A DNA stretch of 37,668 nucleotides from Nitrospira sp. (GTDB lineage Bacteria; Nitrospirota; Nitrospiria; Nitrospirales; Nitrospiraceae). Location of the stretch: positions 1 through 37,668 of the forward strand of contig JAJFBJ010000027.1 in NCBI GenBank assembly GCA_020697375.1, given 5' to 3'. Below the pieces are notes generated by a model. It searched no databases and was not told the origin of the DNA. It saw nothing but the letters and a program-made list of their open reading frames with translations. Below are positions 29,028-35,621 of the stretch, one piece after another. Every line of letters begins with the position of its first letter. The stretch's first letter is position 1. The position numbers and the translations under genes are program-made.

Positions 29028-29351
29028 TTACCAGACAGAGTCGGGCTTCAACTTCTCAGCGGGCTTGCCGCCTTTGATATGCTCATCCAGGATGGTAGCG
29101 ACGTCGTCTTCGGTAACCCTGGAATACCAAGTGCCTTCCGGATATACGACGACCGTCGGTCCCTGCTCACAGGGTCCAAGGCAGGACGACCCAGTGACGA
29201 GTACTTCTCCCGGCATGATGCCGCGTTGCATCAATCCTATATTGAAGGTCATGAGCAATTTATCAGACCCTTGGCCCCCACAGGAAGGCTTCGGGTGACC
29301 TGGCGGGCGGGCATTGGTACAGACGAGGATATGATATTTCGGCTTTGGCAT
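29028..29351 (-). CDS. Thioredoxin-like [2Fe-2S] ferredoxin
   Basis: 107 residues, the length of Shethna-type (NuoE-like) [2Fe-2S] proteins. Four cysteines can ligate the cluster: Cys in HILVCTNARPPGHPKPSC (two) and in GSSCLGPCEQGPTVVVYP (two). The pattern C-x12-C ... C-x3-C and the GPTVVVYPEG motif match the family. It acts as a soluble electron carrier; partner not known. Start ATG has GGAGA six bases upstream (ttGGGAGAtcagcATG). Confidence 0.9.
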   Translation of the reverse strand: MPKPKYHILVCTNARPPGHPKPSCGGQGSDKLLMTFNIGLMQRGIMPGEVLVTGSSCLGPCEQGPTVVVYPEGTWYSRVTEDDVATILDEHIKGGKPAEKLKPDSVW

Positions 29352-29522: not shown

Positions 29523-29819
29523 TTAGAATTGGGGCGGGCCATGGTTTGTTTTTCTGATCTCTTCTTCTCCTTGGCAGGTGCGTTCCGCCAACATGCGCTG
29601 TCCGACACTTGCCTTCGCCGGGATTCTCGCGAGACATGCCTTCAGTGTGTCCTCTACGGCGCCCGATGCCACCTCGCTCTCCTTGTCCGTGGGAGGAAGA
29701 ATCATGGTGCCCTTCACGTGCGCTTCCTCCGCATGAGTGAAGGACGGCGACAGCGATGACGCGAGCAATAGCATTGACGGGAGAAGGATTGACCGTTTTA
29801 CCAATAGATGAGTTTTCAT
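29523..29819 (-). CDS. Small secreted two-cysteine protein (copy 1)
   Basis: 98 residues. A clear signal peptide (SILLPSMLLLASSLSPSFTHA, cleaved near AEE) is followed by a mature ~70-residue polar domain with two cysteines: SGAVEDTLKACLARIPAKAS and then VGQRMLAERTC. The core motif ED-(T/S)-L-x-AC-x-ARIP-x2-AS-(V/I)-GQRM-(L/I)-AE-x2-C recurs in the gene at 33613-33921, so the two are paralogues. The Cys pair may form one disulfide in the periplasm. Function unknown. The start is supported by a GAGG about 9 bases upstream. Confidence 0.8.
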   Translation of the reverse strand: MKTHLLVKRSILLPSMLLLASSLSPSFTHAEEAHVKGTMILPPTDKESEVASGAVEDTLKACLARIPAKASVGQRMLAERTCQGEEEIRKTNHGPPQF

Positions 29820-30239
29820 GACAGATACCTCATTGGGTGTTGGCCGCTTGTTGGCATTTCATAGTAGGCCGTTCTATGAAACGACTAGCACTTACTTGTT
29901 GAGATAGACTCGCAACGCCATACGTTCACTGGAGGACAGAAAGACATGCCTCACGACAATTGGCACGCTGAAGCTGATGTACTACAGATCAGGCCTAGCC
30001 CGTCGGTTTGACAACGAACGATCATTTACTGTCCCCTATTCATCCGCAATCGATGGCTCACACGCAGTCGATTCACTCGCAAGAGCACCTGGTTCGACGA
30101 TGATTTGGCCGCCTCTTCCGTTCAGAGTCAGCGACTTCGAGCCGGATTCAGTTCCCCGGCAAAGTGGGCTTTGCACGTCGGACCCTGTTTCGGAGTCCCA
30201 TTGTTCGAGATCCCTGTGGCCGTCGTCTGTGTGTGCAAA
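29820..30239. other. Gene-poor stretch
   Basis: No supported gene. A 21-residue frame at 29946 is preceded by GGAGG (GGAGGacagaaagacATG) but stops at once and may be a remnant. The rest lacks features; a T-rich, palindrome-free spacer lies next to the small secreted protein start. Confidence 0.35.
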
Positions 30240-30362
30240 TCATCGGTCATCCACACAGCCGAAATTGATGCATCGCGTATCCTGCAGCGCCGTTTGTTGA
30301 CCATAATCCCTGACGTTCCAGCTGTTCTGAAGCAGTAACCCGCCACATCGTGTACAGTGCAT
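30240..30362 (-). CDS. 40-aa CxxC zinc-ribbon miniprotein (copy 1)
   Basis: Start ATG 30362 is preceded by GGGAGAAC. The product is MHCTRCGG... with C-x2-C at residues 3-6 and, after about 25 residues, RCINFGCVDD (second Cys pair, C-x4-C). The arrangement resembles MHCSRCEGLM...WRCLLCGE of the gene at 34181-34393, so both belong to a family of small zinc-ribbon proteins. The longer frame to 30470 adds an unconvincing leader. Function unknown; possibly metal-dependent RNA/protein binding. Confidence 0.65.
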   Translation of the reverse strand: MHCTRCGGLLLQNSWNVRDYGQQTALQDTRCINFGCVDDR

Positions 30363-30470
30363 GGCCTGTTCTCCCATTTTTCCTATGCTGCGCCTTGAGC
30401 TGCAACCTGGCTGGTCAAAATTGCTCAGTTTGTAAATGGTGTCTAGCCCATAGTGTTCAAGGTGCGGCAT

Positions 30471-31027
30471 GGCGGAAAAAACGGGCTATATGGAACTAGT
30501 TCAGGCTCGCTATGCGCTCTTGGGGCGTATTCCAGAAGCGCAAACAAGTTGCCGTTGGGGGTCTACCGTCGACGACGAGCGACAATAACCGAAGGATGAC
30601 TGTGATGTGGTTACGGATAGGTACATGGATAGAGCTCGGTATGCACATCGGGTCGCCGGATAGAAGGGGCGAACCGCCGGATAGGTATTTGGTTCACGCT
30701 GCAGTACGGTTTGGGACGACTCAGTGGCATTACGGCCCGGCTCCTCCTAACCCGACAGCGGATCCGGTGGCCTCGCTCCAGCCGGCACCTCAGCCGACCC
30801 TGGTTCTGCATCCTGAGCCTGAGCTAGAGAGAAGGCATCTCTTGTGGCGATAGGTCCCGCCAGTCGTGTAGAAGTTGGCACCGACACCAATCAGTGGGTG
30901 GGTTTTCTTAGAAGGCTCTCACAAATTCCAGGGGAGAAAAACACGGTCACGCGAGATGAGCTCATGACGATGAAGGGCGTCATCGCGGCAGGTCACTCCA
31001 ACCATGGCAAATTAGTCTCGTCAGCCG
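30471..31027. other. Gene-poor stretch
   Basis: Open frames (e.g. 30512-30853 and 30844-31122, plus strand) have a protein-like but unrecognised composition; the first contains a Pro/Ala-rich tail (PAPPNPTADPVASLQPAPQ) and the two overlap at a GTG/TAG junction, but no Shine-Dalgarno site or family supports them. They could be remnants of a decayed gene pair. Confidence 0.35.
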
Positions 31028-31444
31028 ATGATTCTGCGACTGCTAGCGCTGTGTGCCTGTGGATCGTCCCACCTCGGGCCTGTTCCCCCGGAGCAATTCC
31101 TCGATGTATCGACGGAGGTTGACATGAATGGGCTTCCTCTCCGCTTCAAGAAAGAGGGTTTAATCGAACGGTACCAGGTCGAAGGGATGGATCCAAGCGA
31201 CCGCTCCTTCAATCGAACAGTCTTCGTCAACCGAACTGTGGGCGGGTATGCGGGGAAGGTGACCTATGAATCCTTCGCCGTGGAGGGAACCGATCAACCG
31301 ACCACCGGCGCAGCCGTCAGGTCGGTTGTTGAAAAGCTGCTCGGCTTTGGGTTCACACGATTGCGCTCACGCCTCAACTTCAAAGGGTCTCGGTACCTGG
31401 CTGAAAAAGAAACGTGGGTCGACTACGCGGACCTGCCGTCCTGA
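31028..31444 (+). CDS. Hypothetical protein, possible short-leader lipoprotein
   Basis: 138 residues. The first 11 residues (LRLLALCAC) resemble the end of a lipoprotein signal but are too short for a normal one, and an in-frame stop lies just upstream, so the N-terminus may be truncated. The body is a soluble alpha/beta domain with segments such as NRTVGGYAGKVTYESFAVEG and AVRSVVEKLLGFGFTRLRSR. No family recognised. No clear ribosome binding site. It precedes the Crp/Fnr remnants by about 70 bases. Confidence 0.55.
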   Translation: MILRLLALCACGSSHLGPVPPEQFLDVSTEVDMNGLPLRFKKEGLIERYQVEGMDPSDRSFNRTVFVNRTVGGYAGKVTYESFAVEGTDQPTTGAAVRSVVEKLLGFGFTRLRSRLNFKGSRYLAEKETWVDYADLPS

Positions 31445-31511
31445 GCTCTTAATCGCAGTGCACCCTGAGCCCAGGAATTCGCGACGGTCGTGCCAAGGCC
31501 AGCCATGAGCC

Positions 31512-31641
31512 GTTGCGGAGATCCGTACCACGGGATGATGAGTGTATTTCTTCACGAACAAGTTCGGAAGTTGGATACATCGAATACGATGGCAAGTATC
31601 ACCTCCACAGCTCATTCCTGAATGTTGTACTGCATGACTAG
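31512..31641 (+). pseudogene. C-terminal remnant of a Crp/Fnr-family regulator
   Basis: The last ~22 codons read GYIEYDGKYHLHSS then FLNVVLHD and stop at 31639-31641, the same ending as the Crp-type gene just downstream (HSSLLNVVLHD). Further up, the text corresponding to TTR-SRVSFF-NKFRKL is still recognisable (ttcttcacgaacaagttc) but needs at least two single-base corrections. No N-terminal part is present. A decayed duplicate of the adjacent gene. Confidence 0.6.
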
Positions 31642-31727
31642 CCCTTCTACTTTGTCACTGCTGATCGCTATGCAATTCTCAAAGTAGCCTTCGGCCCACC
31701 GGGAGGCATTTGTATTTCTGAGCAATA

Positions 31728-32400
31728 TTGACCACTCTCCTTTGCCTCGGCGGCATAGCCTGGAAAAAGGTATACATCCGTCAGACTTTTTTAGTCAAAG
31801 TCGGCACTGGCAGAACGTATCTCACCTCTCCGAAGAACCACACGATTTTCTCTCAAGGAGACGTCGCGAATGCCGTATTTTTTATTCAGGCCGGAAAGGT
31901 CAAGCTCAGTGTGGTACCCCGGCAGGGCAAAGAAGCGGTGCTGCGCTACTGGAGACCGGCGCGTTCTTTGGAGAATCCTGTCTCGTTGGACAATTGATTC
32001 GCACGATCACTGCAACCGCTGGAGAAGAAACCACACTCGCGCGCATCGACAAGGAAGCTATGATTCGCGCGCTGCATAAAGAGCCGACGTTTTCCGACCT
32101 GTTTATGTCCTATCTGTTATTACACAACATGCGCATCGAAGAAGGTTTGATAGGCCAACTCTTCCATTCAAGTGAGAAGCGGCTCGCGCGCGTATTGTTG
32201 TTGTTGGCCCATTTCGGGAAGGAGGGTAAGCCGGAGACGGTCATTCCGAAGATCAGTCAAGAAACGCTGGCCGAGATGATCGGCACCACGCGATCACGGG
32301 TCAGTTTCTTCATGATAAGTTCCGGAAATTGGGATTCATTGAGTACAACGGCAAGCCCCACGTCCACAGTTCCCTTCTGAATGTTGTCCTCCACGACTAA
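31728..32400 (+). pseudogene. Crp/Fnr-family transcriptional regulator gene with frameshifts
   Basis: Three reading-frame segments together give one cNMP-binding regulator. The first (31728 onward) has FLVKVGTGRT, IFSQGDVANAVFFIQAGKVKLSVV. A single missing base near 31943 would restore the expected AVL-ALLETGAFFGES, continued in the second frame through SSEKRLARVLLLLAHFG and the helix-turn-helix SQETLAEMIGTTRSRVSFFM. A second missing base at about 32315 (atgataag for atgaataag) leads to the third frame: KFRKLGFIEYNGKP then VHSSLLNVVLHD, stop at 32398-32400. The intact protein would be a ~220-residue regulator. Real decay or sequencing errors are both possible. Confidence 0.75.
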
Positions 32401-32448
32401 TTTTTCTCACTTCATACAAGTCGCTCTAGAAGGAAGGACCGACATTTA

Positions 32449-32950
32449 ATGAAAGATAAAGAGCCAGGGTCGGGAAACCGGTGGTCTATCTTCGATCGCG
32501 CCGTGAATGGACCGACCATCGGTCTGATGGAAACCCTTGATGGCTGGGGGGTACATCACCACCGGGTTTAGTTTCCTGATCATCGGCATGGTGGTTTTTG
32601 TGCATGCCTGGTACGGCTTTGCGCTCATGGTAGGGTCCAAAGCGATTCCAGCGGTCCTAACTCTAGTGCATGATCTCCTGCTGGTCATTATCCTGCTCGA
32701 ATTATTTCGCACCATCATAAATTTTCTTAAAACAAAAGTTATTACGCTGGAGCCGTTTCTCTATATCTGTGTCATAGCGTCCACCAGACGCATACTCACA
32801 ACGGGCGCCCAAATCGCTTATATGGAAGAGTTGAGAGATCAGGCATTTAACCGTTATCTGCTCGATCTCGGGGCCAATGTACTGGTCATTGTGGCTTTGG
32901 TCGGGGCGGTGTATCTCGCCCGTCGAGCAGCTCAGCCCGCGGTCGCATAA
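32449..32950 (+). pseudogene. PsiE-family membrane protein gene, frameshifted at a G run
   Basis: ATG 32449, preceded by AGGAAGGA, opens a frame reading KDKEPGSGNRWSIF...IGLMETLDGWG and then stops early. From a run of six G (32546-32551) the next frame reads YITTGFSFLIIGMVVFVHAW and continues as a four-helix membrane protein (VLTLVHDLLLVIILLELF, ICVIASTRRILTTG, VLVIVALVGAVYLARR), which matches the PsiE family of phosphate-starvation-inducible proteins. With five G the gene would give an intact 166-residue protein. It lies 48 bases after the Crp/Fnr gene. Confidence 0.7.
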
Positions 32951-33330
32951 GCGGGACAGACCTGTCTCGTTGTGACCTGTGTCCTCCACTATCAACTTCA
33001 GGCGAGTGAGCGTCATCTCAGCGGCGGGCAGCGATAGTCGATGAGAATAATTATTGCTGCATACAATCGTGCGGTTATGGAAGGTTCGGATGTCAGGCTC
33101 ATTGACTCCATCTCTGCACCACTATAGGGTGAATACATGACGCGCTAAGCCCCGTGAGGATTCTTCTCTGGCACGCTGTGCTTTCCTCGTGCGTGTGGGG
33201 TCACTACCTTCGCCGCTTTCTCGCCAACGCATCGCACTTCGCAAGTAGAGTCCCTCGGATCGCCTACGGTGCGCAGCGCTTCATTCTAGTTTTGTGTCAT
33301 CGTCGAATATGTCTAACCGGGAGGCACATT
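32951..33330. other. Gene-poor stretch
   Basis: No supported gene. Contains the promoter and ribosome binding region of the 28-aa peptide gene at its right end (GGGAGG). TGGCACG at about 33168 resembles part of a sigma-54 site, but the spacing to a second half is wrong. Confidence 0.35.
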
Positions 33331-33417
33331 ATGTATCAGATTTTGACGCTGGTGGGATTATTGCTATTCATGTGGGGTACTGCCATGTGGGCGACCAATG
33401 CTACGGATAACGCATAA
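33331..33417 (+). CDS. 28-aa single-helix membrane peptide
   Basis: ATG preceded by GGGAGG six to seven bases upstream. The peptide is one transmembrane helix (ILTLVGLLLFMWGTAMWA) plus a short polar end (TNATDNA). Too short for most gene finders. No family recognised; similar tiny peptides often regulate membrane enzymes or transporters. The spacing to the two-cysteine secreted protein gene is about 195 bases. Confidence 0.55.
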   Translation: MYQILTLVGLLLFMWGTAMWATNATDNA

Positions 33418-33612
33418 AATGCATTCGGCAAACCATCTGGCGTGAGCGCCGGTGGCGGACCCGAGCAAGAGACGACTACACCAATCCGTGGCTGATGATC
33501 CGAGCGACGCTATGAGGAGAGATTGCCTCACAAAGGAAAGCGGGAAGTTTCATGGGAGACCCTGCATGGGGAGTATGTCTAAACGTTCCATTTTTGCTCA
33601 GAGGAGAACGTC

Positions 33613-33921
33613 ATGAAAATGAATCGATATGCTATGCGGATACTCAGTGCGTTGCCCATTTTGTGCGCGGTATGGTTGGCGCCGTTGCCGGCACAGGCGG
33701 AAGACTTGCCATCGGGAAAAGGATTCGCTGAAAACGACACAGTTACTGAATCAAGAATGGCGGCCGGGGCGGCTGAAGATAGCTTGCAAGCTTGTATGGC
33801 TCGGATACCAAAAGATGCCAGTATCGGACAACGTATGATTGCCGAGCAGAGCTGTGGGCGTGATGAAAGCGAACGGAAGCCCTATGAAGTCATTCCGGAA
33901 GCAGGAAGCGTCCGCCATTAA
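33613..33921 (+). CDS. Small secreted two-cysteine protein (copy 2)
   Basis: 102 residues. Signal peptide (RILSALPILCAVWLAPLPAQA, cleavage near AQA-ED) and a mature domain with the same core as the gene at 29523-29819: AGAAEDSLQACMARIPKDAS then IGQRMIAEQSC. The two cysteines are 19 residues apart, as in copy 1. The N- and C-terminal parts differ. The start is supported by AGAGGAGA about 6 bases upstream. Function unknown. Confidence 0.8.
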   Translation: MKMNRYAMRILSALPILCAVWLAPLPAQAEDLPSGKGFAENDTVTESRMAAGAAEDSLQACMARIPKDASIGQRMIAEQSCGRDESERKPYEVIPEAGSVRH

Positions 33922-35294: not shown

Positions 35295-35621
35295 ATGAGC
35301 CTTGCGGTTCAGATAAAAAAGATCGTCGGAGTGTTGTTAGACGATGGCGATTGGCACGAGGTGCGCCCCGGCAGCATGGCAGTTAACAAATTTGAGTTGG
35401 CTGACGGAGACGACACGCTTGTCAGGGGTGGTTCCATCCCCGGGGTCTCGTGTATGGGTCTAGCGTTCAAGGAGAATGAGGGAGGCCTGATGATTGCCTG
35501 CCCCATCACGTCAGTGAAGGCGGTTCGTTATCGAGTTGAGGATTCACTCCGGTCAGGTGTTATTTCCGCTTCTCTTGCCGGCATTCCTACAAAAGAAGCC
35601 ATTCCTGTTAAGAATGTGTAA
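35295..35621 (+). CDS. 108-aa hypothetical protein
   Basis: Start ATG with AAGGAGAAG seven bases upstream. The sequence alternates strands and turns: SLAVQIKKIVGVLLDDGDWHEVRPGSM, FELADGDDTLVRGG, GLAFKENEGGLMIACPITSV. It looks like a small soluble beta domain. No signal peptide. Not recognised. About 40 bases separate it from a degenerate ORF region upstream. Confidence 0.65.
   Translation: MSLAVQIKKIVGVLLDDGDWHEVRPGSMAVNKFELADGDDTLVRGGSIPGVSCMGLAFKENEGGLMIACPITSVKAVRYRVEDSLRSGVISASLAGIPTKEAIPVKNV

What the first reader, a model, noticed from the sequence alone, without database searches (positions are those of the whole stretch)
29523..33921. Two diverged copies of an undescribed small secreted two-cysteine family
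The genes at 29523-29819 (minus) and 33613-33921 (plus) both encode ~100-residue exported proteins with the same core: (S/A)GA-x-ED-(T/S)-L-x-AC-(L/M)-ARIP-x2-AS-(V/I)-GQRM-(L/I)-AE-x2-C. Outside the core and signal peptides they differ. Two copies within 4 kb, on opposite strands and each with a good ribosome binding site, show selection on the core. I know of no named domain with this pattern. The Cys spacing (19 residues apart) suggests one disulfide in the periplasm; possible roles are stress response, metal or cofactor binding.
Basis: partly seen in the sequence, partly recalled or inferred. Interest (0 to 1): 0.7.

Follow-up and report, generated by a model that had tools for sequence, protein, structure and literature searches.

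The report
Nitrospira stress-linked two-cysteine hairpin proteins
Two small exported proteins in this Nitrospira-type contig belong to a family without a named domain, predicted to fold as a helical hairpin that two cysteines could staple; many relatives, and one of the two here, lie downstream of an RNA-like hairpin element that elsewhere precedes stress genes.

Summary
Confirmed: 29523-29819 (-) and 33613-33921 (+) encode exported ~100-aa proteins sharing a 42-aa core with C-x19-C (BLASTP 1e-18). No Pfam, NCBIfam or PHROGs family reaches its cut-off and no PDB sequence matches. The family is large (1,691 profile hits), in 136 of 175 genomes of the N. moscoviensis family and 0 of 199 of another phylum. 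The two genes are old subfamilies, not recent duplicates; lipoprotein forms with one or two cores exist. AlphaFold gives a confident core hairpin. New: 23 of 37 secreted-form cores, but 0 of 29 lipoprotein cores, have a ~90-nt hairpin element upstream on the same strand. It is not in Rfam, its stems covary, and elsewhere it precedes CsbD/BON/DUF1328 genes and an IscA-oxidoreductase operon. The window holds a diverged copy (33145-33229, E=1.8e-4), then a conserved 28-aa membrane peptide, then the plus-strand gene; the minus-strand gene has none. Best reading: periplasmic hairpin modules of a Nitrospira stress regulon. Binding partner, disulfide and element action are inferred.

The parts
29523..29819 (-). 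alpha-type two-Cys exported protein, 98 aa; Cys62 and Cys82; C-terminal Phe
33613..33921 (+). beta-type two-Cys exported protein, 102 aa; Cys61 and Cys81
33145..33229 (+). diverged copy of the ~90-nt hairpin element, 383 nt before the beta gene
   Evidence: R2: 25.7 bits, E=1.8e-4, next best in window 11.6; R1: 15.2 bits, E=0.0085; aligns with L073:3121-3209, which is itself among the 66 training copies of R2
33331..33417 (+). 28-aa membrane peptide MYQI..., 101 nt after the element, 195 nt before the beta gene
   Evidence: 13 distinct relatives in fetched loci; no Pfam match for 33334-33417
32537..32950 (+). PsiE-like membrane protein; relatives in 6 of 18 comparison loci
   Evidence: PF06146 E=2.9e-7
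31742..32380 (+). Crp/FNR-type regulator, split over several frames; relatives in 9 of 18 comparison loci
   Evidence: PF13545 and PF00027
34181..34393 (+). small CxxC zinc-ribbon-like protein; relatives in 10 of 18 comparison loci
   Evidence: no Pfam match at 0.01
30512..30853 (+). conserved hypothetical f115; relatives in 3 of 18 comparison loci
31028..31444 (+). conserved hypothetical f124; relatives in 2 of 18 comparison loci
35295..35621 (+). conserved hypothetical; relatives in 2 of 18 comparison loci
29857..29881 (.). inverted repeat TTTCATAG/CTATGAAA upstream of the alpha gene; of the five alpha relatives scanned, L143 and L087 have a version

Best explanation
The two genes encode exported members of a Nitrospira-lineage family whose 42-aa core folds as an alpha-helical hairpin, closed in the periplasm by one Cys-Cys disulfide. 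The hairpin is a small non-catalytic module, used once in secreted proteins and once or twice in lipoproteins. The secreted forms are products of a Nitrospira stress regulon: many of their genes, like CsbD/BON/DUF1328 genes and an IscA-ferredoxin-oxidoreductase operon, carry a conserved ~90-nt hairpin in what is probably the mRNA leader, through which expression is likely tuned. Shown by computation: the family, its lineage limit, the conserved Cys, the predicted hairpin, the element, its covariation, and the gene associations. Inferred: export, the disulfide, transcription of the element, stress induction, and a protective binding or scaffolding role in the envelope.
For: Family and limit. 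Core conservation: 267/267 for both Cys, one Asp, one Arg and one Gln in 263 proteins. Confident hairpin, block means 91-93 for residues 61-80. Element upstream on the same strand of 23 of 37 secreted cores, none downstream, 0 of 29 lipoprotein cores. Covariation: 41 double-change cells against a shuffled mean of 9.4, 0 of 500 shuffles as high. Of 37 element copies in 7 genomes, 31 precede one of six recurring gene types, 10 of them two-Cys genes; CsbD, BON, DUF1328, Fe-S_biosyn and POR_N confirmed in examples. Window copy, followed by the MYQI peptide as in L073.
Against: The alpha gene of the window and its near relatives L087 and L143-L146 have no element; nor do the beta relatives L001 and L002, and in L073 the element is 3.5 kb from the beta gene, so the element-beta adjacency of the window is not conserved in the nearest genome held. 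The first 43-copy model showed no covariation above shuffles. The 66-copy alignment was fitted to the structure, and copies are related by descent. A sequence-only alignment did not recover the middle stem. The window copy does not fold better than shuffles (z -0.04). No expression data were seen. 14 of 37 secreted cores have no element.
Confidence: 0.45

Rival explanations
1. The element is a double-stranded DNA site or a mobile hairpin repeat (REP/MITE-like), not an mRNA leader; its place near two-Cys genes reflects lineage history.
For: 2-10 copies in each of the genomes with more than one match; an imperfect inverted repeat with strongly conserved sequence; no covariation in the first 43-copy set.
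Against: Fixed orientation and place: 23 upstream same strand, 2 upstream opposite strand (both besides a same-strand one), none downstream; 31 of 37 copies precede recurring gene types; pair exchanges such as GC to UA and AU to CG are not expected of a protein site that conserves letters.
Confidence: 0.3
2. The hairpin is a periplasmic protease inhibitor: the invariant Arg-Ile-Pro at the border of the first helix and the turn is presented as a bait loop to trypsin-like proteases, as alpha-hairpinin inhibitors do (recalled).
Against: The first core of some tandem lipoproteins lacks the Pro or has Lys; the homologues were gathered by shared words, which favours conserved motifs; the fold scores are in the noise range.
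Confidence: 0.07
3. Metal- or cofactor-binding periplasmic protein.
For: Two invariant Cys.
Against: No conserved His; the main Met is replaced by Leu in 20 of 267 domains; the predicted fold is a bare hairpin.
Confidence: 0.08

Closest known systems
PsiF repeat (PF07769)
   Same: Small exported proteins with two-Cys repeats (C-x20-C in the short repeats seen), single or tandem; found in the same genomes (33 of 60).
   Different: No profile similarity (hhalign probability 0.08-0.38%, column-shuffled controls score higher); different conserved residues; no Pfam match of the 119 members scanned.
Plant alpha-hairpinins / vicilin leader peptides
   Different: Four Cys in a fixed motif (abstract start of PMC11591084 seen in the listing) against two here; no sequence match.
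General stress regulons with CsbD, BON (OsmY-type) and DUF1328 genes (role of these genes largely recalled)
   Same: These gene types recur downstream of the element.
   Different: Here they are linked by a hairpin element; no stress sigma factor or its promoter was looked for.
Rfam cis-regulatory RNA families
   Same: Conserved, covarying hairpin upstream of several functionally related genes.
   Different: No Rfam 15 family matches; ligand or signal unknown.

Membership tests
PsiF repeat PF07769 | match to the Pfam profile | tested here: not met
   no PF07769 hit for the two proteins at E up to 10 nor among the families listed for 119 members
PsiF repeat PF07769 | profile-profile similarity of the repeats | tested here: not met
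   probability 0.08-0.38%; 48 of 200, 65 of 200 and 22 of 100 shuffled profiles score as high or higher
alpha-hairpinin | four cysteines in a fixed motif | tested here: not met
   two Cys in the core; definition from a search listing
alpha-hairpinin | helix-loop-helix fold | tested here: inconclusive
structured cis-regulatory RNA | compensatory base-pair changes | tested here: met
   (41 cells against 9.4 shuffled); alignment fitted to the structure; earlier set inconclusive
structured cis-regulatory RNA | fixed place and orientation before genes | tested here: met
structured cis-regulatory RNA | transcribed and changes expression | not testable with these tools
   no expression data held
general stress regulon | known stress-protein families among the linked genes | tested here: met
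   CsbD 6e-15, BON 6.7e-30, DUF1328 6.8e-7
general stress regulon | shared promoter of a stress sigma factor and induction by stress | not tested
   only gene content was examined

The most novel reading that the evidence does not exclude
A new class of cis-acting RNA in Nitrospira senses a stress-related signal (temperature, oxygen or a metabolite) and switches a lineage-specific regulon that joins envelope microproteins (two-Cys hairpins, the MYQI membrane peptide) with CsbD/BON/DUF1328 proteins and an IscA-ferredoxin-oxidoreductase operon of carbon metabolism.
Probability: 0.3. Interest if true: 0.8.

Novelty: new variant of a known kind. Interest (0 to 1): 0.6.

Why it matters
Nitrospira is a main nitrite oxidiser and includes the complete ammonia oxidisers (recalled). 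It is hard to grow and its stress responses are poorly known (recalled). A conserved element that marks a set of its stress and envelope genes would give a ready list of co-regulated genes, testable in existing transcriptomes, and would place a large unannotated protein family in the envelope stress response.

Tried and rejected
PsiF kinship looked right by eye (two Cys, tandem, exported) but failed profile comparison. One search had by mistake taken only the long repeats; one search used both kinds.

The 20-mer of the element is absent from the window at up to 3 mismatches; only the covariance models found the diverged copy. A regex for FNR/CRP-type palindromes found none in the 220-nt upstream stretches of 21 cores. 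A ferredoxin gene beside the alpha gene has no relative in the 18 comparison loci.

The residue count pre-selected Arg/Lys by its filter, so I recounted by HMM without it.

Literature: searches listed no paper whose title or abstract start names this family or element (one search found no paper at all). I saw listings only and opened no paper; the library holds open-licence papers only, so this does not show that nothing is in print.

Full report
A six-frame HMM scan shows no third copy in the window. Pfam gives one sub-threshold match (0.036), NCBIfam and PHROGs none, the PDB sequences none.

It is a large family of one lineage. phmmer gave 212 and 177 homologues for the plus- and minus-strand proteins; a profile search gave 1,691 at E up to 0.01, of which the best 120 were listed. 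A pattern scan of the genome collection gave 84 stretches, 41 confirmed: 39 titled Nitrospira, Nitrospiraceae or Nitrospirae, one titled Nitrosospira (isolate NOB2), and one Oscillospiraceae match of 30 residues that the core HMM scores only 0.008. With the core alignment, 46 of 198 genomes of the phylum sample match, 136 of 175 of the N. moscoviensis family, and 0 of 199 of the phylum of the Oscillospiraceae genome.

Anatomy. Three forms were seen: secreted with one core, lipoprotein with one core, lipoprotein with two cores. In 267 domains of 263 proteins both Cys, one Asp, one Arg and one Gln are invariant; Ile, Pro, Gly, Ala, Glu and a later Arg nearly so. That sample leans to conserved sequences because candidates must share 5-residue words. 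Of the 120 proteins first listed, 92 end in Phe, against 1 of the 143 first listed. AlphaFold with 119 sequences gives a low overall model (pLDDT 66, pTM 0.34) but a confident core: helices 58-64 and 71-87, means 91 and 93 for residues 61-70 and 71-80. Fold matches are weak; the two best by Z are plant alpha-hairpinin-type peptides (3.4 and 3.2; Foldseek best E 2.5). Core codons are under purifying selection in relatives (median dN/dS 0.16; 222 of 1,770 pairs usable, none with the window genes, whose synonymous sites are saturated).

Surroundings. Around relatives, mostly alpha-type, the same small genes recur that lie around and between the two window genes. Among 18 comparison loci, each with a two-Cys gene, relatives were found of the zinc-ribbon protein in 10, Crp/FNR in 9, PsiE-like in 6, f115 in 3 and f124 in 2. 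Many two-core lipoproteins instead follow an ABC-2/ABC_transp_aux/DUF4340 operon.

The element. Upstream regions of alpha relatives showed a shared block. It can form GACUG(4)AUC(3)CGCGC-loop-GCGCG(3)GAU(4)CAGUC with outer AGC/GCU and CG/CG pairs. A model of 43 copies picked by sequence (R1) showed no covariation above shuffles. R1 then found divergent copies. On 64 distinct copies of that alignment, double-change cells were 41 against a shuffled mean of 9.4 (0 of 500 as high), with 9 pairs changed on both sides (16 of 500 as high); slid controls were far lower. The alignment was fitted to the R1 structure, and the copies share descent, so this is strong but not final. A sequence-only alignment of 26 divergent copies recovered the outer, first and inner stems, with exchanges such as GC to UA, but not the middle stem. 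Rfam has no match. R2 finds it in 39 of 198 Nitrospirota genomes (strict filters) and 0 of 101 of the other phylum; 35 of the 39 are among the 46 with the domain (lists compared by hand).

Association. In loci fetched for the protein (four repeated places dropped; 900 nt required on both sides), 23 of 37 secreted cores have the element within 900 nt upstream on the same strand; 2 of them also have one on the opposite strand; none has one downstream; 14 have none. None of 29 lipoprotein cores has any. By subtype (repeats included): 13 of 16 VPGR-type, 12 of 18 ending in Phe, 2 of 14 others, of which 7 belong to the lipoprotein type by tail and lipobox (one with a masked N-terminus). A view from the element side: 37 copies of 7 genomes (the two weakest of G282 left out), with my reading of the nearby genes, gives two-Cys genes in 10 (one frame-broken, one as second gene), CsbD-like in 8 (two short or broken; of three scanned one matched CsbD, below cut-off, others not), DUF1328/BON in 5, IscA-OFOR in 4, an unnamed secreted family in 3, a zinc ribbon in 1, other in 6. 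Pfam confirms CsbD (6e-15), BON, DUF1328, Fe-S_biosyn and POR_N in examples. That OFOR serves the reductive TCA cycle in Nitrospira is recalled.

The window copy. R2 scores 33145-33229 (+) at 25.7 bits, E=1.8e-4; the next best is 11.6. R1, without the divergent copies, gave 15.2 bits, E=0.0085. It aligns with L073:3121-3209, a training copy of R2, and both are followed, after 101 and 113 nt, by the MYQI membrane peptide with a good ribosome-binding site. In the window the beta gene comes next, 195 nt further; in L073 it lies 3.5 kb away. The predicted fold of the window copy keeps a long hairpin but is no more stable than shuffles. The alpha gene has no copy, nor have its relatives L087 and L143-L146; a different inverted repeat lies before it.

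Mechanism. Likely steps: stress signal, leader RNA, synthesis of envelope microproteins and cytosolic stress proteins, export, disulfide closure of the hairpin, binding or scaffolding in the periplasm. Only the sequence-level parts are shown. Metal binding is disfavoured. A protease-inhibitor role of the invariant Arg-Ile-Pro turn is possible and untested.

Noticed in passing
window 31480-32440: A Crp/FNR-type gene is split over several frames, with a remnant of a second C-terminus just before it (31513-31641); decay or assembly error.
   Followed up: partly
L033, L030, L032, L034-L037 and others: Two-core lipoproteins follow an ABC transporter operon with ABC_transp_aux and DUF4340 proteins.
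   Followed up: partly
window 33331-33417; L066, L073, L088, L117, L125, L129, L130, L132, L135, L137, L138, L141, L142: A 27-32 aa membrane peptide MYQI...WG..WA with good ribosome-binding sites recurs beside two-Cys genes.
   Followed up: partly
L005, L011, L015, L020, L073, L076, L078, L079, L081, L083: An unnamed secreted family with NP(A/D)(M/L)LP(K/E)HPGYP lies near two-Cys genes and after some element copies.
   Followed up: no
L004, L012, L072, L076: A small RRM RNA-binding protein gene lies downstream of the two-Cys gene.
   Followed up: no
window 29028-29351 (-): A thioredoxin-like 2Fe-2S ferredoxin gene lies 171 nt downstream of the alpha gene; no relative in the 18 comparison loci.
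   Followed up: partly
33 of 60 genomes of the N. moscoviensis family: True PsiF proteins with two repeats occur beside the two-Cys family.
   Followed up: partly
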